In this document: positions 14,657-42,694 of the stretch, in pieces | Numbering within the stretch: position 1 is the stretch's first letter | Layout: every line of letters starts with the position of its first letter | Source: Mesostigma viride | Lineage: Eukaryota > Streptophyta > Mesostigmatophyceae > Mesostigmatales > Mesostigmataceae | DNA: 64,000 nt | Assembly: GCA_009746045.1 (NCBI GenBank) | Contig: RPFO01000165.1 | Location: forward strand, 1,594,046 to 1,658,045 | Direction: 5' to 3' | Position numbers and translations under genes: made by a program | The notes under the pieces: generated by a model | Databases searched by the model: none | What the model was told of the DNA's origin: nothing | The model's input: only the letters and a program-made list of their open reading frames with translations

Positions 14657-14830
14657 CTACATCATCCCCTGTAAATAGTCAATCACCCCCTGGGGAAGGT
14701 GTGCTGGATGTACATAAGGATGGGGGTGTGCCCCTTGTGCAGCACCAAGGGTGTAAGGATGTTGTTCTTCCACTGGATTGCAATAACAATGCTGCAGCTG
14801 AATTCCCTATTCCTCATGCAGGTGGTGGGT
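14653..14830 (+). CDS. Copia-B pol, first segment (before the gypsy insertion)
   Basis: In frame with ancestral gag: SPVNSQSP, GGVPLVQHQGCKDVVLPLD, AEFPIPHAGGG, matching Copia-A residues 3-58. It breaks at the GGGT duplication and resumes at 37186 with SPAGAGLEG. Confidence 0.85.
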
Positions 14831-16125
14831 TGTCGCGTCTGCGTACCACAATCTCCGGCGCCACCATGGCGGCTGGCCATGCTCAGCTTTGGTAAAACCC
14901 AAATGAGCTGTTGTGCCTGCCTTAACTGCATGCCCGGTGGGTTGGGCGAGGAGCTGTCCCATGATTAACGAAAGGAGGGCTCTCAGCCGAGGACAAGGAA
15001 CTGTCCCTCGTGCCTGATGACCACCTTATTGCCTCCCCTGCTACAGAATAATGCTTTCACAACACACACTTTGCACAGTCTGATGATGAAGCCGCACATG
15101 CGGAATTTATTGAGAAAGTTAATTCAATTACAACACGTTGATAGTCTCAATATCGATGCACTCCATGCTCACGAGCCCGCAGTTAGGCAGCGCTCCATGA
15201 CATGCTACCGGCCTTGCTCCCAAGGAAAGGGAGAAACACGAAGGCCACTAACGAGAGACTCGAAGAGACTACACGCTACGTGAGAGTCCTCTTCGACTAT
15301 GAACCAAACCATTCGTCATGCCACACGCATGACACACGCCACACTTGTCAGTCCAGCCAGGAATGCCAAAACTATCTTGCTGCCTGAACCATGCAAACAG
15401 AAACCGCATTCCAGTTGCCGTCCTGGCTTACTACCACACATGCCAACAAAAACAGGAAGGCATCCCGACAAATCTAAATTGCTACCCTGTTGCCGATCTC
15501 ATCTCCTAGAGGCTCCGGCATTTCTGTCCCTGGGAATGTCCGGCATTTAGTCACGACCACCAAGGTCGAAGCATAATATCCTTCAAACAATCTGCACGCT
15601 CACACCTTGCGTGTGAGTGGCCCAGCAAACATTGCTTCTAATCTTTCCTTTCTAGAAGAAATCCCTTTGTAGGGCTGCCAGCGATTTCGCATTCATTCCA
15701 GCGATCTGGCTCCGCACCGCAAATTGTCCTTTTCCATTTTCTGTCCAGTCCTCATAACGTTGACCCGCTATTCTACACCACAAAGACACCTGGCCTGTCA
15801 ATAGCCTCGGCGCTGTTGAAGTCCAGCAGTCCAGCTCCAGCTCCAGCTCCAGCTCCAGCTCCAGCTGTCCACTAACTCGCGTATGATCCTCTCGACGCTG
15901 CGCACTTGTGCTGCCGTCCGCTCAAGTACGTCAGTGCTGCGCGCCCAGCCGTGCCTGGCCCGGCGCGCGCGCACGTGCACTTTCGTCCGCTCTTATGCTG
16001 CAAGTGCTAGTGTCCCCCCCCGGTCACTAGCCTTTGTCGAAAATGCGCAGAAAACAAATTCCTTGCGCACGTCACCGGTCTTGTGCATAGTGGGCGCCCG
16101 GATGACATAGCTCGCGTCCGTGACA
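14831..16125 (-). repeat. Gypsy 3' LTR (left copy)
   Basis: 1295 bp with TGTC...GACA ends. 14966-16125 matches the right LTR. The terminal 135 bp (14831-14965) is absent from the right LTR but is repeated, slightly diverged, at 16128-16266 just inside the element. It contains a (GCTCCA)n tract at 15832-15866 that is shorter in the right LTR. Confidence 0.85.
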
Positions 16126-16266
16126 GCTGTCGCGTCTGCGTACCACAATCTCCGGCGCCACCATGGCGGCTGGCCATGCTCAGCTTTGGTAAAACCCAAA
16201 TGAGCTGAGCTGACGTGCCTGCCTTAACTGCATGCCCGGTGGGTGGGCGAGGACCTGTCCCATGAT
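16121..16266 (-). other. LTR-LTR junction-like palindrome and partial LTR end
   Basis: TGACAGCTGTCG at 16121-16132 contains the palindrome GACAGCTGTC, i.e. one LTR end (GACA) joined to an LTR start (TGTC) by GC. The adjoining 16128-16266 repeats the LTR end seen at 14831-14966. This is what remains if a two-LTR circle junction was used as template or donor. A G-rich tract (GCGAGGGGGGAA in sense, about 16264-16275) next to it may be the polypurine tract. Confidence 0.5.
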
Positions 16267-16293
16267 TCCCCCCTCGCTGGCTCTCATGGCTCC

Positions 16294-17124
16294 TCACATG
16301 GCCAGCGACCGTGCCAACACCACAGCAGCTAAGGAAATGGTGACGCTACTGGTTGCGAAACGGGCAGCGACACAAACTGGGCAAAACCACTGGCCCGCTG
16401 GCACGGTGGTGAGCGCTGGCTGCAAGCAGTGCATGTGCCACCCACAATTACAGTGATCACACAGCAACATGGTATCCCCCTGGTCTACGCGATGGCAAAC
16501 CTGACACTGTGCGTCCTTGACCCGCCTGGCCGTGTGCGGGGCGAGGTCAGGCAATAAGTTGGGCAACGAACACGGACTGAGGTTGCTTACGTTATCGGTG
16601 GTGCGACTGCCGTCGACGCCCTCCAAAATGGCGACCCCAGATGGCTTGATGGCGACGATCCGCAAGATGGTCGGCCCCGCAGTCACGTCAAGAGTGTCGG
16701 TCAGCTGCGTGCGGAGAAATACGAACTGCCCCGGACGAAAATGCAGCTGACGGGCCATGTAAGCGCCCCCCCGGCGCTGAGCGTAGCGCAGGGTATCTCG
16801 GTGCTGGGCGATGAACAAGTTGTTCATGGCGATGGGCATAACCTTGCGGAAAGTAGCCGCCCGTGCGGTCACCTCAGCCAGAAACTGACTGGCGTTGTCA
16901 AACGCCATAGGGGTGGGGTGTGCACTCTGCGCCTCCGTGGGGAGCAAGGGTGCGCGCCCAAACAACAGGAAATACGGGGAGAAACAGGCGAGCGACTCCT
17001 GGGGTGACATTCGGTAACCCATGGCTATCCACGCCAGTTCACGATCCCACATAGTGAATGATGCTGACTGCAGGCTCCACTTGCGCAAAGCCTGCTTGAC
17101 AGTCTGCACCAATCTCTCAGCCAA
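16294..17124 (-). CDS. Gypsy integrase C-terminal part with PHD finger
   Basis: 276 residues, in the frame following a break at about 17120. The opening AERLVQTVKQALRKW carries the third catalytic residue region of the DDE core (canonical NGxxER). Residues about 127-190 resemble the GPY/F module (RPGQFVFLR, GPTILRIV, GVAILEGVDG, NLSPC). Residues 207-251 form a complete PHD zinc finger, Cys4-His-Cys3: CQVC, CDHC, H230, C233, QWFCPVC, with the usual Trp two residues before the seventh ligand. Many gypsy integrases end in a chromodomain; a PHD finger here could read histone H3 tails and direct integration. Binding specificity is unknown. Confidence 0.85.
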   Translation of the reverse strand: MAERLVQTVKQALRKWSLQSASFTMWDRELAWIAMGYRMSPQESLACFSPYFLLFGRAPLLPTEAQSAHPTPMAFDNASQFLAEVTARAATFRKVMPIAMNNLFIAQHRDTLRYAQRRGGAYMARQLHFRPGQFVFLRTQLTDTLDVTAGPTILRIVAIKPSGVAILEGVDGSRTTDNVSNLSPCSLPNLLPDLAPHTARRVKDAQCQVCHRVDQGDTMLLCDHCNCGWHMHCLQPALTTVPAGQWFCPVCVAARFATSSVTISLAAVVLARSLAM

Positions 17125-17695
17125 ACCATTGGCCTGAGGATGCTCCGAGAAGTGCGACGGTGATCAATGAGACATGCATCCAACAATTCCTGAAATTCCC
17201 CCGAAACTCCCCGCCCTGGTCGGTGACCACCTCCGCGGGGGCGCCAAACCTGGCGATGATGTCGGCGAAGTGCTTGGCGGTGGTGGCGGCCTGCTTGTCA
17301 GCAATGGGGATGAGCTCGACCCACTTGCTAAAACTTTCGACACACACCATGACATACTTGTGGCCATCTGCACTTTCATCAAAGGGCCCACACAGGTCTA
17401 CGTGCCAGCGGTAGAAGAGCCCTCTGATGGGTAGGCTCATCAATTCTTTCGCATCGTGGTCCACATTGAACCGGGCCTTCACCCGGGCACACTGCGCGCA
17501 GCGAGCGACGACCTGCGCGACTGTGGCACGCATGCCGTTCCACCAATAAGAGGCGCGCACTAGCGCCAAAGTGCGGTTACCACCCAGGTGGCCATACCGC
17601 TCATGGCTTGCTGGACGATGGCGACCCGCTTGTGAGGCGGCGGCACCACCACTTTGCGCTTGCCGATCATTTTGTGGAGGACCCCGGCATCCCAC
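17117..17695 (-). CDS. Gypsy integrase: zinc-binding region and catalytic core
   Basis: The H2C2 zinc motif lies in HERYGHLGGNRT...CAQCARVKARF. The DDE core follows: HVDLCGPF (first Asp), then VVTDQGGEF (second Asp). The frame shifts near 17603, where it leaves the RT ORF, and again twice after GGEFRG, before the ERLVQTV segment in the next ORF. The N-terminal ~30 residues of this ORF are out-of-frame sequence. Function in the intact ancestor: cDNA integration. Confidence 0.85.
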   Translation of the reverse strand: MGCRGPPQNDRQAQSGGAAASQAGRHRPASHERYGHLGGNRTLALVRASYWWNGMRATVAQVVARCAQCARVKARFNVDHDAKELMSLPIRGLFYRWHVDLCGPFDESADGHKYVMVCVESFSKWVELIPIADKQAATTAKHFADIIARFGAPAEVVTDQGGEFRGNFRNCWMHVSLITVALLGASSGQWFG

Positions 17696-19437
17696 GAGTA
17701 GGTGACCGCCCTATGTTGCACCCTATTCAACTCAGCGTCACGCTGGGCTGAGGACCAATCAACAGGGGTTGGGGTGAGAGCTATCCCTTGGACCTGCTCC
17801 AACACACGCCCATCGAGCCACACATCACCCATGTTGCATTCCACTGTGAGATGGCCAACCAACACCACCTGGAGTGCTAGGTATCGTGCCAAGGTATTGT
17901 CAATGTCAAAGGACGGAGAATTACCTTCCTCCAACGCGAGGAGGCCAGCGGCAGGGGTGAAGGGAGAAGGGTGAACTGCATTGCAGCTTGCCGCAAAGTC
18001 TGCGACTGTATACTCGACTGCGCGCCAGTCTGCCTCGGCGTCGGCGTCAGCGAAGCCTGCAGCATTAACAAAAACCACAGACCCAGGCGAGCTCTCGGCC
18101 CCTAGGGCCCGCGCACCAGTGTTGTCAACAGTGGTTGGTAGAGCATACCTGGACAGGACGTCCGCGTTGGAGTGATCCACACCTGGCCGATGGACGATTG
18201 TCAGGTGGTACTCCTGAATGATCATTGCCCACCGGGCCAGCTTACCCGTGAGTTTGTCGCTGGTCATCAACCACAATAAGGGCTGGTGATCAGTGACAAG
18301 TGTGAACACCCGCCCAAAGAGATATGGCCTGAAGTGCTTGATGGCCCACACAACGGCTAACGCTTCCCCCTCGTAGGAAGAGTACCGACTCTCGGCAGAG
18401 TTGTTACTCCGACTAGCGTACGCGATAACATGCTCGCGCCCCGCATCGTCCTTTTGTGCTAGCACAGCCCCTAGGCCTACCTTGGACCAATCGGTGTAAA
18501 GAATGAAGGGCAGAGCATAGTCGGGGGCGCGTAGGATAGGAGCGGCAGTCAGTTCCTGTTTGATGGTATCGATGGCTCGCTGCTGAGCCGGACCCCACGC
18601 CCAGACATTGCCCTTCTTCAACAACTCAGTCAGGGGTTTGACTTTGGTGCTGAAATTCTGAATATATCCTCGATAATAGCCAGCTAGCCCGAGATACGCG
18701 CGCACCCCCGAGATGTCGATGGGCACTGCGGCGTTGCTGATGGCTTCCACTTTGGCTGCCTCAGGGGTCCGGCCACCTGGTACAATCTGATGGCCAAGAA
18801 ACCCTATGGTCTGTTGGGCGAACTTGCACTTTTCAGGGTGCAGCCGCAGGTTGGCCTTATCTAGGGCGATCCGAACCTGATCGAGGTGAGCTAAGTGCTG
18901 GTCAAATGTCTCGCTAAAGACAATGACATCGTCTATGTAGCAGGCTGCAAATGGCAACCCTGCCAGCACCTGGTCCATGGCACGTTGGAACACCGCACTA
19001 GCGTTGCGATGTCCGAATGGCATGCGAACCCACTCGTACAGACGGGTCCCACCCCAAAAGGCCAGCTTGCGCTGATCTGCCTCTACGACCTTGATCTGAT
19101 GGAAGCCGCTACGCAAATCTAGCGACGACACATACTTGACCTGGGGAGATATTTTATCCAAAACATCATCGACCCGAGGCATGGGGTACCTATCAACAGG
19201 AGTGTGCGCGTTCAGCTGACGCAGGTCAGTGGCCATGCGCATACCTGTCCACTCGCCTGTGATGGTATCCTTCTTGGGTGCGACCACCGTGGCAGCTGCA
19301 TAACTGGAGGATGAAGCGCGGATGATCCCAGCTGCCTCTAGCTCTCGACAGTTAGCATCTACGAATTCCAGCTCAGCCAAGCTCAGCCTATGCTGCCGCC
19401 TGAATAAGGGCTGATCCGTATCTAGTGGGACCCCCAT
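17560..19437 (-). CDS. Gypsy reverse transcriptase and RNase H
   Basis: 625 residues. RT: LDTDQPLFRRQHRLSLAE entry motif, SSLDLRSGFHQI (first catalytic Asp), MPFGHRNASAVFQ, and the YIDD box at 167-170. RNase H follows from about residue 305: FILYTDWSKVGLGAVLAQ, SSYEGEALAVVWAIKHFRPYLFG, VTDHQPLLWL, VDHSNADVLSR. The ORF then runs into the linker to integrase (HKRVAIVQQA) where the frame is lost. The coding start is arbitrary: the polyprotein upstream (KAMEHWL, then EELGCYNGGC) is joined by another frameshift near 19480. Confidence 0.93.
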   Translation of the reverse strand: MGVPLDTDQPLFRRQHRLSLAELEFVDANCRELEAAGIIRASSSSYAAATVVAPKKDTITGEWTGMRMATDLRQLNAHTPVDRYPMPRVDDVLDKISPQVKYVSSLDLRSGFHQIKVVEADQRKLAFWGGTRLYEWVRMPFGHRNASAVFQRAMDQVLAGLPFAACYIDDVIVFSETFDQHLAHLDQVRIALDKANLRLHPEKCKFAQQTIGFLGHQIVPGGRTPEAAKVEAISNAAVPIDISGVRAYLGLAGYYRGYIQNFSTKVKPLTELLKKGNVWAWGPAQQRAIDTIKQELTAAPILRAPDYALPFILYTDWSKVGLGAVLAQKDDAGREHVIAYASRSNNSAESRYSSYEGEALAVVWAIKHFRPYLFGRVFTLVTDHQPLLWLMTSDKLTGKLARWAMIIQEYHLTIVHRPGVDHSNADVLSRYALPTTVDNTGARALGAESSPGSVVFVNAAGFADADAEADWRAVEYTVADFAASCNAVHPSPFTPAAGLLALEEGNSPSFDIDNTLARYLALQVVLVGHLTVECNMGDVWLDGRVLEQVQGIALTPTPVDWSSAQRDAELNRVQHRAVTYSWDAGVLHKMIGKRKVVVPPPHKRVAIVQQAMSGMATWVVTALWR

Positions 19438-19457
19438 GCAGCCCCCGTTGTAGCACC

Positions 19458-21200
19458 CTAGTTCTTCACTGCTGAAAGCGAAACTGAGCGTGCAGAATGC
19501 AACCAGTGCTCCATAGCCTTGCGTTGCGTGGCGGTGAGGTGCTCACCTATGGCCCATATGTGAGAGGCAGCAGGATCTGCGACTGCGGCACTCCTACTGT
19601 CGAGACAAGGCCCCCGGACAGCGGCATCGTGGAAAAGGGAAAATGCGGCTACACCGGGTGTGACGCTCACCTGCTGAATGGCACGGACTGCGCGACCGAC
19701 CGATTGCTGCAGGGTGGGCGCTCCAGCGAACACCGTGCTGGACAACAAGGACGTCATGAGGATAACGCTCCATAGTTGAAGCAGCCGCGATCTCCATGGC
19801 GACCCAGTGCCGCCGGACGCTGTTGGCCGGACACCAGCCGCGTGGGCACTGACAGGCGGTGGCGGTGTGGGGATATCTCCCCCACCCTGGCGCACTTGCA
19901 TTGCGGCCCGCAGAACATACCCAACCTGGAAGGCTGACATGGCTTGCCCAACGAGAGACCACCTAGTGGCCTCTAAAACCCCCTCAGCGGCGGACGCCCC
20001 CACATGGAACCCCATGCTCACCTCCGAAACTCAGCGGGCGGCTGCACCAACAAACCCGTACCGGTGTCCCATACCAAACCCTTGCCCCGGTCCCTGTAGG
20101 CCGATGACCCCTGGTAACTAACCAAGGTGGGAAGAGCGCACATAGGCTTACCTACGTGATTGACGGGTGCGTAAGGGTGCCGATCGGCGACATCTACACG
20201 CTGCGTGACCAAATGTGGTGGCAGCGCCACCTCCGCGGGCATGCCGTCGTGCTGTCGTGTGATCGCATCTACCACTGCCTGGATGGTGGTGGTGAGTGCA
20301 AGGTTGGTCCAGAATGCGCGGTACCTGTGGGTGAGCCCGCCCAATCCTGCATTGTCGCACGTGACTGGGCCCCTAAGATGTCCACGATCTGGGCCCAGTC
20401 CTTCCTCACTACCTCGTGAGGGCTGTCGTCGGCCACCACGTTCTCAAAAAGATACGCTAGTGGCTGGTCCTGCAGCTGCTGCAAGAGTCCAACGACTCGA
20501 AGCAGATCCCAAAACAACCCGCTCCTAGGATCCGCAAGCCCGCGTCCTACGCCGGCCTGACTCAACCCTTGACATTCCCAGCCCGCGAGGACGAGGTCTA
20601 TCCTCTTGTGCCGCCTCAAAAGGCCTCGCACATGAACCTCCCCAATAGCACGGATATCCTGAGGGCACTCCCCAAACGGATCTGTCCACGCAGACGGAGG
20701 AACTGAGATGGATACAGGGCAGACAGCTGGGCACAGTGATGCCTATACACTGCCCGAGCGGTAGGAGACGGCTCTACGGCGATCAACGTGTGGCACGTAC
20801 CGCCTGCAGCGAGAAAGCCAGCCAGCCCCCCTCCCATCCCAGCAAACAATTCTAGCAATACAACCCCTTCGGACAAGACCCGCGACTCTGCCACAACATC
20901 GGCACAGAAGTTACCTTCGGTTGTCGCGACAGCCACTTGGGACTGCGATTGCCGCGGGAGATGAGAGAGTTGTTGCTGCCGCACCGCGTTGGTGACGTGC
21001 TGACGCAAAAGGGCCTGCCGCGCTTGCGGCTGCTGTCGCGCCGCCCACGTGCTCTGCAATGAGGCCCGTCCCACCAGCGCTGTTGGGATGCACGGCCGAT
21101 GCTTATCACGCACAGCCCCCCCAGCTGCCGTGACCTCCCCCATCCGTACCTCCACCACCGCGTCGCGAGCCAGCCTCGACCCGGTTGACCGTCGAGACAC
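19458..21200 (-). pseudogene. C5-cytosine DNA methyltransferase domain inside the gypsy polyprotein, frameshifted
   Basis: Four overlapping frames line up with one C5-methyltransferase. Frame 1 (21200-20616): motif I VLLELFAGMGG at residues 115-124, followed by VEPSPTARAVYRHHC. Frame 2 (about 20703-20269): motif IV LAGWECQGLSQAG at 20551-20586 with the catalytic Cys, then GLADPRSGLFWDLLRVV and motif VI FENV. Frame 3 (20344-20018): HRYRAFWTNL, then LPTLVSYQGSSAYRDRGKGLVWDTG. Frame 4 (20021-19458): MGFHVGAS...RWSLVGQAM, the C-terminal SAM-site motif. Breaks lie near 20703, 20360 and 20020. The canonical Pro-Cys of motif IV is Glu-Cys. The domain lies between protease and RT in pol sense, so it was made as part of the polyprotein. 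Frame 4 continues into a hydrophobic segment (LWSVILMTSLLSSTVFAG) before RT. Confidence 0.88.
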
Positions 21201-22326
21201 GCACTGCCCCAGTGTCCGAGCTGTAGCAGCTCACCGGGATGCTTGCTTGGCGCATGGCGTCACCGTCTCTGTCAACGATGTACACCGCGCGGCCTTCCCA
21301 CATGCGTACCTCGAGCCGCATGGGAAACATGACCTCCATGCCGACCAGCACGTCATACGATGACTGCTCGGTCACAAGGGCATTCACAGGGATGCAGGCC
21401 ATGTCGGATGGCCTGAGCGGGTTGAGGATGACCATTACCTGGACCGCAGTCATGGCAAAGGGTTTAGCGGCAGGGCCCTGCCAGCCCGCCACGGACACAT
21501 GACTGTCCCGCAGCCCGCCATTCTCCCTGGTTAGGTTGAGCAACTGGGCCAGCCGAGCACTGATGACGAGTGGCTGGGCCCCGCTGTCCAGTTTCACGAC
21601 CAATTCATGGTCAGTACTGTAGACCACGTTGCTCAGGGGCTCCCCGTGCCCCTGCGCCTGAAACGCCATTGCTGGCTCACCATCCGGATATGAGGTGACA
21701 GTGGGTGCCCTAGGCACTACGCACGCCCGCTGCGCGTTGTCCAAGACACCATGAGCGACATGACCCACGACTACCGAAGCCGATGCAGGGCGATGCCCAA
21801 CAAATGTGGCTGTCTCAGCGTTGTGCAACCTACGGGCGTCCATTGTGTCAGCGTACCGCTGTACCTCTGACGCATGCGACCCGAGCACCTCCACGGCCCG
21901 CTGACCGAACCACTCGACCACTTGCCGGGGAGTGTATGCAGGCGTGTCCACGACCGATGGCATAGGGTATAATGGCAACAACCTGCGCCGCTGCTCTGCC
22001 CCAGCAGGATTGTCGTGTTCCAGGGTGGAGCCGGTCCGAGCGGGAGCCATGCGAAAGGACTGAGGCAACTGCCCCACAGTCTCACTTGGCTGCCCCACCT
22101 GAAACGACGGTGGTGCACGTGCTTGCTTCCCGCGCGCGCCAACTGCGTGGATGTCCAACGCCATCACGTCGGCTGGCCGCCAGAAGTCCTCGTCCCTGTA
22201 TTGAACCTGCGATCCCCCATCCTCCCTTTCACGCCCCCCGCCTCGCCCGTCGGCTGAATGATGACCACCCCCGCGTCCACCTTCTTGTCCTCCACGTCCG
22301 CAAAGTGCACCCCCGGCGCTGGGCAC
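21106..22326 (-). CDS. Gypsy aspartic protease region
   Basis: 406 residues in the -1 frame relative to gag, overlapping gag by 163 nt, so the gag/pol junction could use -1 frameshifting or be another mutation. The retropepsin core: ELVVKLDSGAQPLVISARLAQLLNL (active-site DSG), and YDVLVGMEVMFPM in place of the usual ILGMDWL. The ~190 residues before it are Pro/Arg-rich linker (YPMPSVVDTPAYTPRQVVEWFGQRAVEVL). It overlaps the methyltransferase ORF at its C-terminus in a third frame. Confidence 0.85.
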   Translation of the reverse strand: MPSAGGALCGRGGQEGGRGGGHHSADGRGGGREREDGGSQVQYRDEDFWRPADVMALDIHAVGARGKQARAPPSFQVGQPSETVGQLPQSFRMAPARTGSTLEHDNPAGAEQRRRLLPLYPMPSVVDTPAYTPRQVVEWFGQRAVEVLGSHASEVQRYADTMDARRLHNAETATFVGHRPASASVVVGHVAHGVLDNAQRACVVPRAPTVTSYPDGEPAMAFQAQGHGEPLSNVVYSTDHELVVKLDSGAQPLVISARLAQLLNLTRENGGLRDSHVSVAGWQGPAAKPFAMTAVQVMVILNPLRPSDMACIPVNALVTEQSSYDVLVGMEVMFPMRLEVRMWEGRAVYIVDRDGDAMRQASIPVSCYSSDTGAVRVSTVNRVEAGSRRGGGGTDGGGHGSWGGCA

Positions 22327-24140
22327 TGCCCCGCCAGATGGGTGCGGACCGTTGCCGGGTGTGACTTCTTACACGCCTTGGGACAATCACGTTTGATGTG
22401 CCCATCCTGACCGCACAGGAAGCAGCCCGATTTGCGCGCATCCGTCCTACCCGTCTGTGAGGACGTGCCCCCCCCAGCTCGCGTCGGGGCGGCAGCGTCC
22501 TTGTTGCCGCCAGCGGCGTTACCCTGGGTTGCATCATGCGATGAGGCGTTGCGAGACCCCCCTTGGTTCCTGCTAGCACCGTGGCCGCCTTGCGGGCGCG
22601 CTTGTCTTGTGGCAGACGACTCACCCGACTTGGCCTTGGTCAGCGCGTCGACCTTGGCCTGCAGCTCGGCCACCACCGTGCTTACCGAGATCCGGCCTTG
22701 CGCGTGTCGTCGCATCATGGCCCTGACCTCAATGCACAGTGACCGCAATCGCCACGGCTGGCCGTTGGGCGGCGTGGGCAGCTCCATCTCCTTGGAGCCT
22801 AGCGCTTGCAGCCATTTCTGACACGCCAGCTTTTCGGACCAGTCCTCCACTTCGCCGGCGAACTCCATGAGGCGCTCGTAAGATTGCTCCGGGGTTTCAC
22901 CCTCGGCTATCTTGAAACTGCGCCACTCACGCTCTGCCTTGATGGTCTCCACCGGGTATTCCTGGCGAAGGAGGCCCCACAGTTCCTCGGCAGGGTCGAC
23001 ACCATACATGATGTTGTCATAGTCGGGCTGGCCACGCCCGTCGAAGCCGAACCACACGTCCGTGTGACGCGTGTACAGCGAGACCTCTCTCCACTGCTCC
23101 ACCAGCCTAGCCACTCGCCTCAGCGTAAGGCCGTGAAAGAAGAAATGCATGTTGTTCATCACAAACTCATGCATTACAGCGCCTTGCGTAGTCATGTATT
23201 GCAGATCAATCCATGACTTGTACGCGTTGTAGGCCTGCGCCAGCGTGGCCAGATTGCCGGTTGTGGAGAACTTCTCGCGCATGTCCACCCGTGGTAGGGT
23301 GGGCATCTTCGCGCCTTCAGGTATGAGGCGCACCCTTTGCGGGTACTGCACCCCATCGGCATCCTCCGGCGGTCGCTGAGCTGCGCGTCCCTGCGCCAGC
23401 GTGCTTGGGCGTGCTGCCTCCCGTACTCGGAAAGCCAGCGGCGTGGTTATGTCCTCCATGGGCGGAATGCGCCCGATTGGCACACTTGACCACCGTGCAG
23501 TCGACCCGCCGGTCAGCGCCCCACCGCCTCGCCCAAACGGAATTGAGACCCCGCCTGGCAGCATGCGTCCTGGTGCACCCCTGCGTGGGTCCATCGCGCG
23601 CGCCAGCCCTGCCCCGTTCTCCTCGTGCAATCCGTCTCGCGCTTGATCGAAAGGCAGGCGCCTGGGCGCCAGCGTATACTCGCCCCGTGGCTGACCATCC
23701 GCCTCACCAAGCAAGTCGTGTTGGGTTAGCGACCCAGCCAAAACCCCCGGTTCCATCGGAGCCCTTCCCGCCGCATTACCTGAGGTTGGCGGCTGGTCCC
23801 GCTCCCTCGGCTCCGCGGCAACACCACTGGGGCCCGGCATCGATGCCTGCCCGTCCCATGGTGTGGACTGCAGATGACGACCCTCTACGGCCACCAATCT
23901 GTCGGTCACTTCCCGCATCTGCAGCGCCAGTTGCTGCTGCAACTGTTGCGACTGTTGCTGCATCTGCGCTTGCATCTGCGCGAACAGCGCCACCATACTC
24001 AGCGGCGCTTCTTGGTCGCGACTCTCACCCACTGCGGGTACGGCGGGAGGAATCCCGCCATTCGACCCCGGAGCGGACGTGTCGGCATCTGCTCTATTTG
24101 CATCCGCCATGGCTCGAGTCTGCGCTCGCGTCAGTGGCAT
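22164..24140 (-). CDS. Gypsy Gag
   Basis: 658 residues from ATG 24140 (MPLTRAQTRAMADANRAD); a second Met ten residues on (24110) is an alternative start. A Gln-rich coiled-coil-like stretch (AQMQAQMQQQSQQLQQQLALQMREV) lies near 60-85. The retrotransposon gag capsid domain is at about 305-480 (YNAYKSWIDLQY, FFFHGLTLRRVARLVEQW, AEREWRSFKIAEGETPEQSY). A Ser/Gly-rich linker leads to one CCHC knuckle, CFLCGQDGHIKRDC. The frame is intact. The start lies only about 40 bp from the border of the 10.8 kb insertion, which separates gag from its leader. Confidence 0.9.
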   Translation of the reverse strand: MPLTRAQTRAMADANRADADTSAPGSNGGIPPAVPAVGESRDQEAPLSMVALFAQMQAQMQQQSQQLQQQLALQMREVTDRLVAVEGRHLQSTPWDGQASMPGPSGVAAEPRERDQPPTSGNAAGRAPMEPGVLAGSLTQHDLLGEADGQPRGEYTLAPRRLPFDQARDGLHEENGAGLARAMDPRRGAPGRMLPGGVSIPFGRGGGALTGGSTARWSSVPIGRIPPMEDITTPLAFRVREAARPSTLAQGRAAQRPPEDADGVQYPQRVRLIPEGAKMPTLPRVDMREKFSTTGNLATLAQAYNAYKSWIDLQYMTTQGAVMHEFVMNNMHFFFHGLTLRRVARLVEQWREVSLYTRHTDVWFGFDGRGQPDYDNIMYGVDPAEELWGLLRQEYPVETIKAEREWRSFKIAEGETPEQSYERLMEFAGEVEDWSEKLACQKWLQALGSKEMELPTPPNGQPWRLRSLCIEVRAMMRRHAQGRISVSTVVAELQAKVDALTKAKSGESSATRQARPQGGHGASRNQGGSRNASSHDATQGNAAGGNKDAAAPTRAGGGTSSQTGRTDARKSGCFLCGQDGHIKRDCPKACKKSHPATVRTHLAGQCPAPGVHFADVEDKKVDAGVVIIQPTGEAGGVKGRMGDRRFNTGTRTSGGQPT

Positions 24141-24195
24141 GCACCAGCTGACCGATGGGCAAAACAAGAACCAACAAGCCTAGCCCCTAAATGGG

Positions 24196-25633
24196 CAGAA
24201 ATACTGCCGATGCATCGGCTGTAACTTCACAATTTTGCAAACCAGATGCCATCCAACCCACCCATATCCAATGGCTGTCCTTGGGGGCCAAGCATGTCCA
24301 TGAGTTGCCCTTCGGGTTGGTATATGACAACCTTAAATTTATGCAGGGTAGGCCATGTATAACTGCCGTCAAAGTCAGGGGGGTCAAGACGAGCGTTTTC
24401 ATTTTTGGTAGAATGTGCATTTTGAATTATGTTGTAAGAGCTAGGCACCTACCACTTCAGGGATGATAAACAATTAGTTGCTGAACAGTTTGAGCCATTG
24501 GGGCATCATTTGGGTGGGTATACCAGCAGTTACACCCAGTACAGCCCATAGGGGTACCGTTGGTAAAAAGCAACCAAGGGGGTAGGAGTGGGCATACTAC
24601 CTACTAATACCTACTAATGTGGCCCCCAACCATGCCACACAATACGTTTCCCTTCCACAATGATGGGGAAACATAACTGCATCATCACACTGCCCTTACA
24701 TGGCACCTATGTGCTGGTGCCACCTTGTCCATGCACGTAGGTAACGTGGTACGGATACCCTACGCAAGGCATGCATTCTAGGAGGCAGCCACCAACAAAC
24801 TAGTGATTTTAAGCCTATTTCAGCTTGCCCTAGCAAGGATTAACTAGGCCTAAGCTGCTATAGCTTGCCAGGTGATGGCCAGCACACCTGGTGGCACATG
24901 CTGACAATGGGAAGCTTCTACTCACCGGTTACATGCGTGATGATGCCACAGAGACCAGCCAACTGCCTCACACTCATGCAATATGTGTGTGGGAAATGTA
25001 TAGCAAACATATATGGAGGTATTCAAACCCATACAGCCTCTAAAACTTTTCACCATCACCCTGTGGCAGGTCAACTGACTGAGGGAAGCATCTAAGAAGG
25101 GTGTTTTAGAAAGGGGCCAGGCCAGGGTCAAGAAAGAGCATGAATAATGCAAAAAGAATGTGCTACACAAGCTAGAACGTATATATAAACGTCAAACATC
25201 GATAGGAAAACGATAACTCAGCTTTACCAGGCATGGACGGCGTTACCTTGGCCCAGGCGGTGGCCGCAAAATGGCGCATTTCGGCACACCAAAGTTGTGC
25301 AGCATGGTCGCTGGATTCGGCGATTTCTGGCCACCCTTGCACGTTTACGACTACTATGTATCATAAAAAGTACAAAGAAACCAATATATCCTTTAAAATA
25401 CGCCGGAAAGTTATTGCTGTCAACGTTTCTATCGTCCGGCCTGATCGCAGTTTTTTCCAGCAAGAACGCTGCCGACACCTATCAAATGGCATTCCCGCGA
25501 ACCAAAAATTGGCCTGTATCATCTTTAGGACGTATAAAATCAATTTCCTGATTTTGGTCAGAAAATTCGAACGAAAACGTAAATGCCATGCGTGGGCGCA
25601 AGCCGCCATGGCCAGGTCGTCGTTTTCCGGAAT
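24196..25633. other. Non-coding stretch left of the 210-bp inverted repeat
   Basis: No ORF with recognisable content, no tandem repeat, no RNA gene seen. AT-richer than the neighbouring gypsy gag. Confidence 0.5.
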
Positions 25634-25843
25634 GGAAGCGCATAATTTGGCTCTGATGACACAAACTCTAGTGCGGGGGTGAGTGCGGGGTTCCGGGACA
25701 CCACCGCACTAAGTCCGACGCGCCTGCCCAGGCCACGCCGCGCCGGACCGGCACACGAGTTACGCGGGAAAAAAGGGCCTGCCGCGCCAATTACTGTAGG
25801 ACTTGGCTAATTTCTTTGTTGACTACAAGCGCAGTCAAGGATG
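25634..25843 (+). repeat. Left 210-bp inverted repeat
   Basis: Perfect inverted partner of 34510-34719. The identity implies recent formation or ongoing conversion. Confidence 0.9.
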
Positions 25844-28790
25844 CAATTGGCATCATTGCATTATTTTTGCCAAGGTGCTGGCAATTTACGCTTGAAGGTG
25901 GCAAAAATCTGGTTTCTTTGTGATGCAGTAGTGACTATTGCCTGGCAATTGCGCAGCCGGGAAGTTGGGCGACGAGAATGCCATGGTTGTTCTAAAGTAT
26001 AATCATCGGACCCTAATTTGTCTGAAGTAGGAGACAAACAGTCTTTGACGTCCCTGGGATCCATAGCAATAAAAATTCTGCTTTCTCTACTCGCAGTAAT
26101 GTCGGCACACTTAGTTTCCTCTTCGAATCGATCTTTTGTCTGGCAATCTTTCCCTCTCTCGTTTTTTTCTCCCTCCCTCCCTCCCTTGCTCGCTCCCTCC
26201 CTCCGTCTCATGCGTTCCTCCAACGTCCCGTCCTGTCTTCTTCCCCCCACCCTGCCTTCTCTCGTTAGCTTCCGAGCTTTTTATGCATTGCCTCTCCATA
26301 CCTCGCTACCAAGTTTCCAAGTAGACCTTGAAGAGATATACCGGGAAATGCGTCTGGACGCGGTCATCGTGCGCGCCTTTCTCTTCTGATTTTCTGCGTA
26401 AAGCTTGGTAGCACACCTTGTCGGCCCTCGCGGAACTGTCAGCCCGTATCTGGGAACTGGACCACATGTATCTGTTACAGTATCTTGCTTATTTTGCGTA
26501 GGTTGCTAGTGTTGCTGTATCCTTCAAGTTTAGTGTTGCAGAGTGTGACTGACCACTGTATCATTTGGTGATGGGTTTGTTGAATGCTGGGTTTGTTCTT
26601 GTATGAGTGTTTGTATAGGGATCCTTGTGTCCTAAAGTAGAAAGCTTGTCGTTGATACTGCTTCTTCTTTTTTTGGAGTAGCCCTTGGGACATGCAGGCA
26701 AGGATGGCATTACAAATATCAATGAAATACAGTACCAAGCTTTTTACCACTGACGTGCATTGTAAAATAGGTGCAGGCAACTGCCGTGCACATGCCGTGC
26801 CTGAAAATTGTTGAGCCCATGGTGAGCTTTTTTTCTTATTTGGTAATTACAGCGTCAATACGTTGTCTAATGTCAACCAACGTGGATCGACCTGGGCTGA
26901 GGTTGTCAGTGTGTGCGTAAATGTAAAGCACACATGTATGGCTCGCATGTTTGGGAGCCGATCCTAGCCGAATCACACTTTGTTGGCACCCATGCCTGCA
27001 GCTAGTGGGGTCTTTGTGGCTAGGTACCTTGGGACAGTGTTGGGGTTGGCTAGCTAGACTACGTGCAAGATGATTCCACCACTGGCCATCAGTGGCTCGG
27101 TCCTTAGAGCAGCCAACATACCAGCATACTCGCGCATATTTCAGCTTTAGCACACCCACAGTTTGCCATAGTCCAACGAGCGTTGAACGCAGCTGTGGCC
27201 TGCCTTCGGGCATGAGTGAGGACGCAGGTGTCTTTGCCCCTTTCCCACTGTGCAACTTACAGGGACTGGAAAGCACTCTAGGTGCTACATGCCCACCCCA
27301 CCGAGGCATGCTATAATTTCAAAGAGACAACCAGCGCAGGCCAGAAATCGGGAGAATCCGGACCATGGTAGCTCGAGCCTGCCGTTATCTTTTCCGCGTT
27401 TTCGAGTCGTTCAGGATGATGAAGATGAATGGTGATGGAAATGTGTATCCTTGTGCATTGAAATTATGGCTGGCTTACGTGTGGAGCGACTAGATGACCT
27501 AGACGGTGGGGCCGGAAACAGCATGCTTGATCAGGGCGTGTGTTTCTAGCCTAACTGGCCGGGAGTGTCTAGTGGTGAGCACCATTGCTGCGATCGCTCT
27601 CCCACCATTTACGAGGAAATACCCGCAAATGGAAAACCACTGAAAAGGTCTAGCTAGTCAGTCATCACGTTAGCCATGCCATGATTCCAAACGTCCAAGA
27701 ACTGCACACGGTGCAAAGGCAAAAAGCCGGAGGACAGCACTTTCAAATGTGCGGCGGGATAATTTATTTAATTTAATTTTAGAGCAGGAAACATGTTCCT
27801 GTCATCCATGAGATAGCGGCCATTGGCATTGTGAGGATGGATGCACGTCAGATCATATAGTAAGAATTTGGACAATCAAGAATGTGTTTGACGCTCTTTC
27901 AACCCAAATTAAGGTTTGACTGATAATTTGGTCGGGGCTCATTGCTCAACCATTCCAATGGGGATGTATGCTCGTTGACGCAGTCAATCATGACATCTTA
28001 TGATTATTACTTACGGCAACGTGACGTGTGGATCCGCCAATAAATTAGCTATCAAGGTCAACCAGCATCGGTATGCATTATTAAATCAGCAGACGCATGC
28101 ATGTGTTGAATGTTAGCAACGCATACCTTGTGTTGGCCGGCCACCTGCAACTTTACTTACTACTGCAACTTTATTACTGACCAGGTAGATGTTGAAGAAC
28201 CTCACAATCATCCAGTTGTCGCATGGATCCTAGCTAGCCCACGAGGAAAATTTTCAAGGTGCCCAGTTTTATAGCAGTATGCATATAAGACACATGATAC
28301 TGCACCACTGCGGCTAGCTTATGACTGTCCCCATCCCCCCTTCCCCATTCCATCAGGAAATATGCTGACGCTGTCTACGTGTTTATTAATTTATTCATTC
28401 ATGACTGTGTAACATGGCCAACGTGAAGGCAGGCCTTTATGATAATGGGCCCTTCAACTCGAGAGCTCCATCCATTGCAGCCCTTGGGCATTTGCAGCTG
28501 CCAGCTGATAATGCTCCAATATGAGGGTAGTCTTGGAATCTTCATGCCGAAAGCTCGGTCACCACCTCCTGCATTAAGAGCAAATAGACAAGCACTGAGT
28601 TTAGAACCCTGGACTCAACCACACACAAACAATGATTCGTGACAAGCTATGGATGAAAAACTTCAGGAATCTCTTTTTCTATTTGCGTACATATGGGCAT
28701 TACATGCACATGCACAACCACAATACAATAACGGGGGAGAAAAAGGGAAAAGGAAGCCCAGCAGAGAGAGACGCAGTGAGAGGGAGTTCG

Positions 28791-28795
<5 letters not shown>
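25844..28795. other. Non-coding interior of the 9.1-kb unit
   Basis: There is a pyrimidine-rich tract with CCCTCC repeats near 26150-26260 and no convincing gene. It contains one copy of a dispersed repeat (27318-27535) and a short segment near 27680-27740 that is also found at 40652-40720. Confidence 0.5.
27318..27535 (+). repeat. Dispersed repeat, copy 1
   Basis: About 220 bp beginning GACAACCAGCGCAGGCC and including GGTAGCTCGAGCCTGCCG. Found inverted at about 41230-41462 inside the 39260-42692 transposon, and in part at 46078-46235. Confidence 0.8.
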
Positions 28796-31550
<2,755 letters not shown>

Positions 31551-33274
31551 ATGGGGAGAGTTATATTAATGAAAAGAGACAACGAACTTGGAAGCATGGC
31601 ACGCCGAGCCCCCGAGTAAGGTTAAACATTTAGCCACCACGCATTGGGCTTGCCATGAACACCCCATGGAGCGCTATGCTAAGGTTTTCTTGCGACCCCA
31701 TGTTGTGTGTGGCTTGTCAGTAATGTGCTAGTAGGAAAGGACAAGCCACGAGGTTAAGATAAGATTACGCCCGGCATAGGGCTGCCAAACGGGCTCATCT
31801 ACCATAAACGCTGCAATAAGGCTTCTGTAGAATAAAAATCTATTTCCAAGCAAAACCATACCGTAAACCAAAACTAGCAGGCCATAAAGACCAATCACAG
31901 GCCAATCAACAAAACCCAAAGAACATTCAGCCAAAAGAGTTACATTATGCACTACTACAATATTTGATATGGCCTTGGTGAACACCATGAAAGCTAAGGC
32001 AACTAAGAGACCGTGCTTGATAAACGACGCAAATCAGAAAAAGGTTGTTCAATGTATTGATGACATGTAGAGTAAAAACAACACGCGCATACCCAAGCGT
32101 ACCTTTTCTTGGAGCGTACAGCATCCGCGCACCCCGTGCAGTATAAATGAGAGCCAACGAATTGAAGTGGTTCAAGGCCGGCCACAAGTGGATTGTCCGG
32201 ATGGGTGCCCGTGTTGTCACAGCAGCGCCTCCCAGAAATACCTCTGCGAGCACACTTGTAGGAGGCCTTCCTTTTCCTGGTTGCCTTGTTTGTGCCTTCA
32301 CAACTGGGCACTGGTGTTGGATTTTGTCTTGAACTTCCCTGTTTTGGGTCAGCAACATAAGAAATTAAACACGATGTTCAGAAACTAATTACAAGTTACA
32401 ACATAGTCATGGATTTGGTGGGTGCAATTAGCTGGGGACGCCATAAACATAAGTTGCCATTATGAAGCTCACTAACTGCCTTATATGCAAATAACTCCAT
32501 TATCATGGAAAGATGCTTACAACAAGAACATTCCAGACCATGTCGCTACCAAGCATGAGCGAGTTCGAACGGGAAAATGAGATAACGACATGGAAGGGCA
32601 ACGTACGTTGGAAAACGGTTGTCCGCCGTGCTGACCAATCGGTGCCGGCGCTGCCGCAGGTGGAGGTGCTCCAACATGGGAAGGTGGCGGAGAAAGTGGC
32701 GGAGAAGGTGGCGGAGAAGGTGGCGGTGGCGGTGGCGGTGGCGGTGGCGGTGGCGGTGGCGGTGGCGGTGGGGGTGGCGGGGAAGCAGAGAAAGATAATA
32801 CGTGAGAGTACGTAATACGCAAGAGTACGCGTATCCGTAGGCATACGTTTAACATCCGTACGGCAAAGCTGCGTATGATGTATAGTCTGCGTACGAAACG
32901 TATCATATGCCACACTATTTCCCTTTGCGGGGAAGGTGGCGGGGGAGGGGGAGGGATGCTTTCCCCGCGCTGTGAGGAAGGATGCTTGCGTTGCCGCACC
33001 GCTTTACGCCGAGCGAGAAGGCGGCGAACAATACCGCGATGCCTGGGTCGCCGAACTGACTGCCGTTTTGGAGCGATGCATTGTGCCTTGTGCCAAATGC
33101 AGACATGGACATAAGGAGAGCACCTCGGCATATCCCTGCTCAGCAACGCGCAAAAGGAAAAAGGGCAGCGAAGAAAGAAGTTATGAACTACCTCGATCGC
33201 ACCTCAAAATGGCCAAGCAAGTCTAGGCATAGCTGCATGGGGCTGCCAATATAACTCCAAAAATAAACCCTAAC
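31551..33274. other. Gene-poor stretch with protein-like ORF fragments
   Basis: No gene could be assembled. On the plus strand, 32513-32815 begins with MSLPSMSEFERENEITTWKG before entering a GGCGGT microsatellite (32694-32790), and 32936-33226 contains ERCIVPCAKCRHGHKE. These two could be exons of one gene. On the minus strand, about 32110-32310 contains a Cys-rich RRCCDN...LYCTGCAD segment. All are tentative. Confidence 0.3.
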
Positions 33275-34151
33275 TTAAGAATAGCTTCCGCTAGATCCCA
33301 ATAGGCTAGGCCCACCGCGTGCCGCACGTGGCGCCAAGAAGTATCTGAAACAACTCATCATTGTGTATTCCGCTGGAAACTGAAAGAGGAGCATTCAGTG
33401 CATTAGTCGTTTTAGGGTAGCATGGATTCCTTACCTCAGACCAACATGTAGTGCCAATAACGCCAAGGTGATCCACCATGTGGATGCATGAAGATCTGCA
33501 CCACATTGCCGCGTGACAAGGTATGAACATACCAACAAAGTTGCAGAGCAAGCCGTTCTCAGGAGGGCTATTACCCAACCATAAAGCCCCATGGCATAAC
33601 GCTTCCATCTCGTGCAAAAGGACAACTATGACCTAGAAATTCAGAAAATATATTCTTAGTCTTTCCCTCTACTCCTTGCTTACCTGGGTTGATAGGCGCG
33701 ACAACTGAAAACTTCGCAGGCACCCGCGCGCGCTCTTGCACCGCCACATGCCCTACATGGATAACCACCAACCAAACATGAAAAAAGGGTATAACTAGAA
33801 GGATTAAGGAAAGAGGAAATGCATTTAATTCATATAGTTAATATCGCCATGAAATTGTATGTTGAAGTAATAATGGGCCGAAATATGCACATCGGGAACA
33901 CGTCCCATTAATGCACATGCGAAGCTAATGTCAGGACAACGCATCATTAACAAGGGGGGGTCCGCATGCGCAAGACGAAGCAAGTACAGTTAATATGATG
34001 TGCCATTTGGACAGAAACTGGAATAAGGGCTTAACGCCTTACCTAAGGCACAGACCCACACGATGCCGCTGACCGCTAGAAAAATTGCGAGGATGGCCAC
34101 CAGCACACCCTGTCTGGTGCTGGTCAAGCAGCAAAGGCAGGGCCGGGCCAT
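33275..34151 (-). CDS. Small spliced gene, predicted single-pass membrane protein
   Basis: Five exons join into one 133-residue frame: 34151-34043, 33752-33684, 33632-33575, 33495-33435, 33379-33275 (stop TAA 33277-33275). Introns are 290, 51, 79 and 55 nt; all begin GT (three with GTAAG) and end AG after pyrimidine-rich or AT-rich tracts. The start is ATG 34151. Exon 1 encodes a Cys-rich N-terminus and one hydrophobic segment, VLVAILAIFLAVSGIVWVCA, at about residues 16-35. The rest is Cys-containing and unrecognised (HVAVQERARVPAKF, SCIHMVDHLGVIG). Intact phase across four introns is strong support for a real gene. It lies inside the 9.1-kb inverted-repeat unit and could be carried cargo. 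The last exon could be longer if a further intron exists. Confidence 0.5.
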
Positions 34152-34509
34152 GAAAGCTGGAGGTCACGAGCACTTTGTTGCAGTGGATGTAAACGACCCC
34201 CCTGTTTGGAGCACAAAAGGCGAGAAGCAAATTAAAAACGGAAAGCGCCAGTCATACACCGCGCAGCTCGCGAGAATTCCAGGAACCAGTTTTTGTGTGA
34301 TATTCGCATTTAGATGTCGTGCATAACCATTCCTTTATTATCGCACACACCAGTAAACAGTACAAGGATTTGCGTCAACCCAGCTAAATGCCGAGGGTGC
34401 CACGGACGTGTATGCCAGCGAGCTCGAGTCTGGCGAGCAATCACTCAAACATGTCCACTGTCCCTAAGCCGAGCATCACCCTAACATGTCCGCCATTGCT
34501 ACGTTTTAT

Positions 34510-34719
34510 CATCCTTGACTGCGCTTGTAGTCAACAAAGAAATTAGCCAAGTCCTACAGTAATTGGCGCGGCAGGCCCTTTTTTCCCGCGTAACTCGTGT
34601 GCCGGTCCGGCGCGGCGTGGCCTGGGCAGGCGCGTCGGACTTAGTGCGGTGGTGTCCCGGAACCCCGCACTCACCCCCGCACTAGAGTTTGTGTCATCAG
34701 AGCCAAATTATGCGCTTCC
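34510..34719 (-). repeat. Right 210-bp inverted repeat
   Basis: Reverse complement of 25634-25843 without mismatch. Confidence 0.9.
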
Positions 34720-34965
34720 GTACGTGAAAAAGTACCCTGACCCCTTGTACTTTGACCGGCCAGAACACCTCTATAACTTTGTCAGAAGTATGCAAACCCT
34801 AGTACCATGCTGTGAGGAAAATTATAAACTTTCGATCTTCTCAGCTAAACGTTTCCTAATTCTCAATAGTTTTTGCGGCATTTGGTCCCCCGAGAAGGGG
34901 CCGACGTGTCGGCTGTAACTCAGTTTTAGGCGGAAAATCGGCAGCCAGACCATTTAGGGGCTAGG

Positions 34966-35216
34966 TTTCGCTGATAAGAAGCAACAACCAAAGGCTTTAT
35001 AACAGGCGTCAAGGATAACGACTCAACTAGCCTGCCAAAAAAAGACAAGAGCCAGCAAATTCTGGCTAGTTCTTTTTTCTTAAAATCTGTCTCAAGACAC
35101 TTCCTTTACAAACTGTCAGCCAGGCCGTTCCCTGTACTGCTGATGGTTGATAAACACTAAAGCCAACGTCTTGGCTTCGAACAGAAGGAAGCAGACTACC
35201 GGGTAGTCTCTTCGAG
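34966..35216 (-). other. Gypsy leader next to the 5' LTR, with candidate primer site
   Basis: Sequence between the inserted DNA and the right LTR. Directly at the LTR border, 35203-35217 reads GTAGTCTCTTCGAGT, the exact complement of ACTCGAAGAGACTAC at 35509-35523 inside the LTR. It also includes the palindrome GACTACCGGGTAGTC (35194-35208). No match to a standard tRNA 3' end was seen. Self-priming, as in Tf1-like elements, is a possible explanation. Confidence 0.5.
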
Positions 35217-37181: not shown

Positions 37182-37185
37182 GGGT

Positions 37186-39259: not shown

Positions 39260-39683
39260 CACTAGGAACTCAGATTCTGAGAATTTTCTCAAACCCCTCA
39301 ATTTTCTCACCCTTTGTGAGAATTTTTTGAGAAAATTGAGAAAAATCTCAATTTTTTTCCGCAAACGCTAGGCAAAAAATCTCACCAGGGTGAGATTTTG
39401 GTGAGAAAAAGGGGGTTTTGGTGAGATTGGGGTGAGAAAAAACCCTAGAGTGAGAAAAAAGGTGAGAATGGGTGAGAAAAAGTGAGAAAAAGTGAGAAAA
39501 TTGAGAAAATTGAGAAGTTTCTCACCAACACGAGAAAAATCACTAACACGAGAAAAATCACAAGTCAACGTGGTGAGAAATTTCTCACCAAGAGTGTAAC
39601 ACGAGAAAAATCATGAGCTTTATTTCATTAAGTCCTTAACGTGAAAAAAAACTCAACCACTTTGATATGCATTATAGCGCACA

Positions 39684-42185: not shown

Positions 42186-42694
42186 AGTTGAATCAACGGG
42201 TTCTTGCAGCTGTAAACATTAAAATTATTCAAACATTTAATGAAAAAATCATTATTGTTCGTGCTGTTTTGAACAGCGGTTGTTACTGGCACTGCATGCA
42301 TGTGTCTGCTGCCAGCATATTGCATTATGGGTGTGTTTTTCAGCGCTGTGTTTTCTCACTTTTCTCACTTTTCTCACGTCCTGTTTTTCTCACTTTTCTC
42401 ACTTTTCTCATGTCCTGATTTTCTCACTTTTCTCACGTTTCACACCTCCCGTTTTTCTCACTTATCTCACGTCCTGTTTTTTGAGATTTTTCTCACGTTT
42501 TTCCCCTTTTTTCACCTTTTTGGGGCAATCTCACCCAGGTGAGAAACGTGTTTTCTCACCCATTCTCACCCCATTCTCACCCTTTTTTCTCACCTTTCTC
42601 ACCCATTCTCACCCATTTCTCACCCTTTTTCTCACCTTTCTCACCCTTTTTCTCACCATTTCTCACCCATTCTCAAAGCCGAGTTCCTAGTGTA

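What the first reader, a model, noticed from the sequence alone, without database searches (positions are those of the whole stretch)
16294..24140. Gypsy retrotransposon encoding both a DNA methyltransferase and a PHD-finger integrase
Seen: Gag, protease, C5-methyltransferase, RT, RNase H, integrase and PHD finger in one direction within LTRs that have a clean target duplication. Known: retrotransposons with DNMT domains have been reported in charophytes and dinoflagellates, and chromodomain integrases are common. Inference: combining a methylation writer with a C-terminal PHD reader suggests an element that marks its own DNA and chooses chromatin for integration. I know of no description of this pair in one element.
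Basis: partly seen in the sequence, partly recalled or inferred. Interest (0 to 1): 0.88.

Follow-up and report, generated by a model that had tools for sequence, protein, structure and literature searches.

The report
Algal retrotransposon with methyltransferase and PHD
A jumping element in the green alga Mesostigma carries a DNA-methylating enzyme domain and a probable histone-reading finger, and repeats its ends in an unusual split way while inserting like an ordinary Gypsy element; it belongs to a family found in several green algae.

Summary
The pair is real. On the minus strand the window holds Gag, protease, a DNMT3-type C5-methyltransferase, RT-RNase H, integrase and a PHD finger. This copy is dead (at least 6 frame changes). 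The element spans 14831-37181, not 16294-24140. It has no ordinary LTR pair: its repeats are split, A-coding-B-GC-A-B, with TG..CA ends and a 4-bp target duplication, GGGT. The host is Mesostigma viride. All 10 copies fetched carry both domains; three sister-subfamily copies read have one open 2074-aa pol frame with both, and 28 of 140 scored copies have a frame of that length. Of 19 coding copies with both ends mapped, 17 have exact 4-bp duplications, as do 6 of 6 solo A-B copies. In an RT tree all sampled rows with DNMT or PHD form one clade. KnitGypsy-Dnmt3 (2018) is the nearest described element: Dnmt3 in Pol, DIRS-like repeats, PHD not mentioned in its text. New here: the DNMT+PHD clade, target duplications on a split-repeat Gypsy element, and a fused-end palindrome kept in a distant relative. 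Self-marking and chromatin choice remain untested.

The parts
14831..37181 (-). whole element, nested insertions included; target duplication GGGT at 14827-14830 and 37182-37185
   Evidence: repeats, empty site and duplication
35214..37181 (-). terminal repeat A1 (5' end, begins TGTCACGG), with an 812-bp insert 36259-37069
   Evidence: 98-100% match to A2
25623..34730 (.). probable nested segment in the leader, bounded by about 220-bp inverted repeats (98%)
   Evidence: no clear duplication of its own found
22164..24167 (-). Gag ORF with CCHC knuckle
21106..22326 (-). protease ORF (weak Pfam match)
19890..20880 (-). DNMT3-type C5-methyltransferase, split over three frames; limits approximate
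17560..19437 (-). RT and RNase H
16507..17695 (-). integrase (H2C2, rve), over more than one frame
16372..16506 (-). PHD finger
16267..16278 (-). polypurine tract AGCGAGGGGGGA directly before B1
16128..16266 (-). repeat B1
16118..16132 (-). fused-end palindrome CGACA-GC-TGTCACGG (GC spacer 16126-16127)
   Evidence: same in copies and in L001
14967..16125 (-). repeat A2
14831..14966 (-). repeat B2 (3' end, ends GCGACA)

Best explanation
This is a dead, fairly young copy of a Ty3/Gypsy-class retrotransposon family of Mesostigma viride. Its Pol carries a DNMT3-type cytosine methyltransferase between protease and RT, and a PHD finger after the integrase. The integrated form is A1-leader-gag-pol-PPT-B1-GC-A2-B2. 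Shown: domain order; both domains in the ten copies fetched; open sister frames; ends TGTC...GACA; 4-bp duplications, as a DDE integrase makes; few differences between A1 and A2; solo A-B and A-coding-B derivatives, as recombination between the repeats would leave. Inferred: RNA is made from A1 through A2/B2. The internal B1-GC-A2 block is a fused copy of both element ends, and the terminal A and B are regenerated with its help during reverse transcription, as proposed for DIRS-type split repeats (recalled). The cDNA is then inserted by the Gypsy integrase. Hypothesis: the DNMT methylates the new cDNA at CG and the PHD tethers the integrase to an H3 tail, so that writer and reader act at one step.
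For: Domains; copies; ends and duplications; A1-A2 differ by 5, 3 and 4 substitutions in three copies against 9-17 between those three copies; DNMT profile scores DNMT3A 84 bits, HhaI 41, DRM2 36, Dnmt2 30; low pN against near-saturated pS in DNMT (0.15-0.18) and PHD (0.14); one RT clade; junction kept in L001; SymbioDIRS-Dnmt3 domains methylate CG in yeast (PMC5890265 section read).
Against: The nearest described relative, the KnitGypsy-Dnmt3 DNMT, gave no methylation in the same yeast assay; the authors call it inconclusive because human DNMT3B also failed. In this genome the catalytic motif is AGWECQ, not PCQ. Two of 19 coding copies with both ends mapped lack a matching duplication. W3 and W4 differ by only 1 substitution in A1, fewer than A1-A2 within W4. 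Regeneration of ends from the fused block rests on layout only. No tRNA-type primer site was recognised. Histone binding and targeting untested.
Confidence: 0.68

Rival explanations
1. Ordinary LTR reverse transcription with LTR = B-GC-A. The integrase then cuts a circular form at the internal palindrome: a one-LTR circle gives A-coding-B, a two-LTR circle gives A-coding-B-GC-A-B.
For: The polypurine tract lies directly before B1, and the A2-B2 joint looks like an LTR end met by an LTR start. Both predicted forms exist with duplications.
Against: A two-LTR circle cut at either of its two equal junctions should also give A-B-GC-A-coding-B; none of the 17 copies with exact duplications has it (15 end in B-GC-A-B, 2 are A-coding-B). 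A-coding-B is also what B1-B2 recombination would leave.
Confidence: 0.2
2. The DNMT is a passenger with little or no catalytic role, for instance a structural part of Pol.
For: P-to-E change in the catalytic motif here and in several relatives; no match to the motif pattern in P0016, P0021 (partial), P0050 and P0063; no DNMT found in L002-L005; KnitGypsy-Dnmt3 inactive in yeast, called inconclusive.
Against: The catalytic Cys, ENV, RxR and motif I are kept in the nine aligned domains; protein change in the DNMT is lower than in the linker beside it; SymbioDIRS-Dnmt3 domains are active on CG.
Confidence: 0.25
3. Chance join or assembly error that put a DNMT and a PHD into one element.
For: The window copy is broken in several frames.
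Against: 10 of 10 fetched copies have both; three loci have both in one open frame; 27 of 131 database proteins examined have both in one ORF; L001 has both in two adjoining ORFs.
Confidence: 0.01

Closest known systems
KnitGypsy-Dnmt3 of Klebsormidium nitens (de Mendoza et al. 2018, PMC5890265)
   Same: Dnmt3-related DNMT in the Pol ORF of a Gypsy element of a streptophyte alga; repeats laid out as in DIRS (figure legend).
   Different: PHD has 0 occurrences in the text; figures not seen. Target duplications and a fused-end palindrome are not mentioned in the sections I read. Its sequence was not at hand, so kinship is not tested.
Green-algal RT-DNMT-IN-PHD proteins (for example Haematococcus P0033, Pleodorina P0050, Tetrabaena P0096)
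   Same: RT, DNMT-like region, integrase and PHD in one ORF; same RT clade.
   Different: DNMT between RNase H and integrase instead of before RT; listed only as hypothetical or retrovirus-related proteins.
L001 element (contig filed under a cyanobacterial MAG)
   Same: DNMT before RT, PHD after integrase, and CGACAGCTGTCACGG between PHD and gag.
   Different: Two ORFs; its termini and insertion site are unknown, since the contig closes on itself by 127 bp.
DIRS-type elements (recalled; SymbioDIRS-Dnmt3 in PMC5890265)
   Same: Split direct repeats A-coding-B-A-B, and in SymbioDIRS a Dnmt3 in Pol.
   Different: DIRS use a tyrosine recombinase; here a DDE (rve) integrase and 4-bp duplications.

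Membership tests
Ty3/Gypsy (Metaviridae) | order protease, RT, RNase H, integrase (rve) | tested here: met
   open sister frame
Ty3/Gypsy (Metaviridae) | short target duplication (4-6 bp) and TG..CA ends | tested here: met
   17 of 19 coding copies and 6 of 6 solo copies, 4 bp
Ty3/Gypsy (Metaviridae) | the same LTR at both ends | tested here: not met
   A at one end, B at the other, with B-GC-A inside
Ty3/Gypsy (Metaviridae) | tRNA primer binding site after the 5' repeat | tested here: inconclusive
   no TGG-type site seen; a hairpin-forming block follows A1 and 13 bp of it recur in L001 (7 of 200 shuffles reach the score)
DIRS order | tyrosine recombinase instead of DDE integrase | tested here: not met
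   rve and H2C2 found; no tyrosine recombinase among the nine ORFs scanned
DIRS order | split direct repeats A-coding-B-A-B | tested here: met
DIRS order | no target duplication (recalled) | tested here: not met
   4-bp duplications
KnitGypsy-Dnmt3 | Dnmt3-type DNMT in Pol of a Gypsy element | tested here: met
KnitGypsy-Dnmt3 | sequence kinship with the Klebsormidium elements | not tested
   sequences not at hand
Chromovirus | chromodomain after integrase | tested here: not met
   PHD there and no chromodomain hit

The most novel reading that the evidence does not exclude
A clade of green-algal Gypsy elements has left the ordinary LTR life cycle. A DDE-integrase element regenerates its unlike ends (A at one end, B at the other) from an internal fused-end palindrome, as in DIRS elements. 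It also carries a DNA-methylation writer and a histone reader in Pol that act together on the new cDNA and its landing site.
Probability: 0.38. Interest if true: 0.8.

Novelty: new variant of a known kind. Interest (0 to 1): 0.62.

Why it matters
It shows that a methyltransferase-plus-PHD pair is a shared feature of one Gypsy lineage in green algae, with open-frame copies in a culturable streptophyte that has CG methylation. That makes the question of why retrotransposons carry DNA methyltransferases directly testable. Split repeats combined with DDE-type target duplications also break the usual link between integrase type and terminal-repeat design, and pose a clear question about how the ends are copied.

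Tried and rejected
LTR search around 16294-24140 found nothing. The blocks 14831-14966 / 16128-16267 first looked like a small separate element; rejected once A1 was found at 35214-37181 and the empty site was aligned. Sequencing error as the cause of all frame breaks is not favoured, because the same breaks recur in several copies and sister copies in the same assembly are open. Symmetric two-LTR-circle integration is disfavoured (0 of 17 in the mirror form). The first count of frame changes by DNA alignment was dropped because compensating gaps at 70% identity inflate it; one search replaced it. Two IMG/VR scans gave no relative. ARAGORN found no tRNA in the window. No target-site preference is claimed: too few sites. 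CpG observed/expected is 0.85 in the element's coding part and 0.44 in the neighbouring element, and 4 of 7 C-to-T type changes among 8 copies fall in CpG; this only hints at CG methylation after insertion, and the element is also younger.
Full report
What is there. On the minus strand Pfam finds, in order, a zinc knuckle, a weak retropepsin, a C5-methylase, RT, RNase H, integrase and a PHD finger. The DNMT lies in three frames. tblastn with the database protein P0001, which has DNMT-RT-integrase in this order and ends inside the integrase, runs colinearly through it with frame changes.

Ends. A self-comparison of the window showed 14963-16126 matching 35214-37182, and 14831-14966 matching 16128-16267. 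Read on the minus strand this is A1 ... B1-GC-A2-B2. A1 and A2 differ by 5 substitutions apart from an 812-bp insert and a short repeat-length change. The flanks of 14831-37181 join cleanly onto a homologous uninterrupted element elsewhere in the window, and GGGT is duplicated. Two nested pieces explain most of the size: the 812-bp one in A1 and a 9.1-kb segment bounded by 98% inverted repeats.

Host. An ORF at 52479-53582 (class I tRNA synthetase) is 100% identical over 98% of its length to a protein labelled jgi/Mesvir1; relatives are named tyrosine--tRNA ligase. The lineage is Streptophyta, Mesostigmatophyceae. The 440-Mb assembly agrees with the published 442 Mb (PMC6947507, passages). That paper's epigenetics section (read) reports 5mC mainly at CG; a term search of it found 0 occurrences of Gypsy.

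Family in the genome. The RT query gave 70 scored matches from 3808 candidates. Ten copies were fetched. All ten carry DNMT and PHD sequence in the window's order; in W1 only part of the DNMT is in the stretch, and W2 is rearranged upstream. Three copies of a sister subfamily (about 80% identical in RT), nearly identical to each other, have one open 2074-aa frame with knuckle, protease motif, DNMT (AGWECQGLS), RT, RNase H, integrase and PHD. An integrase-PHD query gave 140 scored matches of 2279 candidates, 28 of them in a frame of 2074 aa; only the frames of fetched copies were read. Against the open frame the window copy shows 6 frame changes and 10 stops inside matched segments; W2, W5 and U1 6 changes, W6 6 and 3 stops, W3 4 and 6 stops, W4 4 and 4 stops, W1 none over the part in the stretch. 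Breaks recur at the same places in different copies, so broken copies were probably copied in trans (inference).

Termini. Thirty-seven coding copies were tried, counting the C111 tandem once; both ends were mapped for 19. Exact 4-bp duplications: window GGGT; W3 TTAC, W4 AAAA, W5 TGCC, V2 AACC, U1 GGTT; GCCA, CCTT, CAAG; and 8 of 10. The two misses are C2111 (ACGC/GCCA) and C2217 (GCGC/CACA); the 5' flank of C2217 equals that of C1493, so it may be a duplicate or chimera. In the other 18 an end was not in the stretch, was cut by the contig or was rearranged. Of the 17, 15 have A-coding-B-GC-A-B and two (W3, V2) A-coding-B. A search with B-A-B scored 40 of 758 candidates and gave 42 rows: 33 complete, 1 nearly complete, 6 solo A-B, 2 pieces. 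All 6 solo copies have a 4-bp duplication; two share the same flanks, so 5 are independent. C111 has two copies joined through B-GC-A. A1-A2 distances are 5, 3 and 4 substitutions within the window copy, W4 and W5, and 9-17 between the A1 of those three; but W3 and W4 differ by only 1, and V1 has 0 between A1 and A2.

Conserved fused end. The B-GC-A junctions that I printed (window; W4 and V1; five copies; four loci and the C111 tandem) all read CGACA-GC-TGTCACG. L001, a metagenome contig filed under a cyanobacterial MAG, encodes an element in two ORFs, DNMT in the first and RT to PHD in the second; its knuckle and protease were seen by eye only. It has CGACAGCTGTCACGG between the PHD stop and gag. 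The 18-bp match (17 identical) falls on the mapped junction; 1 of 200 shuffles reached its score. A second shared block after A1 is weaker (7 of 200).

Relatives. 131 proteins came from two capped lists: 120 shown of 2022 RT hits and 11 more of 13 from a DNMT search. HMMs built here find a DNMT in 62, a PHD in 40, and both in one ORF in 27: 26 with DNMT between RT and integrase, 1 (P0016) with DNMT before RT; the P0016 DNMT has lost the motif pattern. In an RT tree of 56 rows, chosen from the 121 RT proteins plus window, sister copy and three loci, the rows with DNMT or PHD all fall in one clade of 47 (SH-aLRT 100; quick search, no bootstrap, three long rows flagged among the outgroups). The window pair is sister to the other 45 (94). 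The sampled mid-position DNMTs fall in one clade of 24 (100), which also holds four rows without a detected DNMT. P0024 (Closterium) and P0037 have an integrase and no PHD hit. L002 and L004, complete from RT to PHD, have no DNMT hit; L003 and L005 are partial. One ancestral pairing with later losses and one shift of DNMT position is the simplest reading (inference); two separate gains of the DNMT are not excluded.

Domains. The DNMT profile scores DNMT3A 84 bits; a chain called only DNA methyltransferase (4onj, DRM by recall) 47; HhaI 41; DRM2 36; Dnmt2 30. The PHD is nearest to BAZ2B, CHD4, WSTF and KDM5-type fingers; that several of these read H3 unmodified at K4 is recalled, not tested. 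Silent sites between subfamilies are near saturation, so only low pN against high pS is claimed: DNMT 0.15-0.18/0.77, linker 0.28/0.77, RT 0.10/0.71, integrase 0.10/0.66, PHD 0.14/0.62 (52 codons). W1 gave 0.31/0.55 over 28 DNMT codons at the edge of its frame, and W2 0.19/0.80 in the integrase where its frame ends; both look like frame-edge noise.

Literature. Nine searches over the held open papers listed none that I recognised as describing a DNMT and a PHD in one LTR element. Of PMC5890265 I read passages and sections 9, 10 and 11; it reports Dnmt3 in a Klebsormidium Gypsy with DIRS-like repeats, CG methylation by SymbioDIRS-Dnmt3 in yeast, and none by KnitGypsy-Dnmt3, called inconclusive. 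Of PMC6338049, PMC12344493 and PMC5408684 I saw passages, of PMC6947507 passages and one section, of the rest only listings. Subscription papers and Repbase were not searched. The kind is therefore known and this is a variant. Reading section 10 raised the passenger rival from 0.20 to 0.25 and lowered the novel reading slightly.

Noticed in passing
window 13674-14830, 37183-39260, 42692-44765 (+); other copy 8591-3298 (-): Another retroelement, split by this insertion; weak Copia-type RT matches (RVT_2, below cut-off) and CpG observed/expected 0.44.
   Followed up: partly
window 25623-34730: 9.1-kb segment with about 220-bp inverted terminal repeats, holding two large minisatellite arrays (28798-29856 and 30024-31102).
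   Followed up: partly
window 36259-37069: 812-bp insert in A1 next to a G run; nature unknown.
   Followed up: no
P0016, P0029, P0041 (database proteins): A further C-terminal region after the PHD; by eye in P0016 and P0041 it looks like another methyltransferase-like fold (a DP/EPFxGxGT-like stretch and SPxF); no Pfam match.
   Followed up: no
L002-L005: Contigs filed under bacterial or archaeal MAGs from sediment carry RT-integrase-PHD elements of this clade, so they are probably algal contamination.
   Followed up: no
window 52479-53582 (+): Host tyrosyl-tRNA synthetase gene, used to name the host.
   Followed up: yes
L061/L062 (V1, C133): A copy with an extra B before A1 and a diverged B-like end after A2, perhaps a recombinant with another subfamily.
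   Followed up: partly
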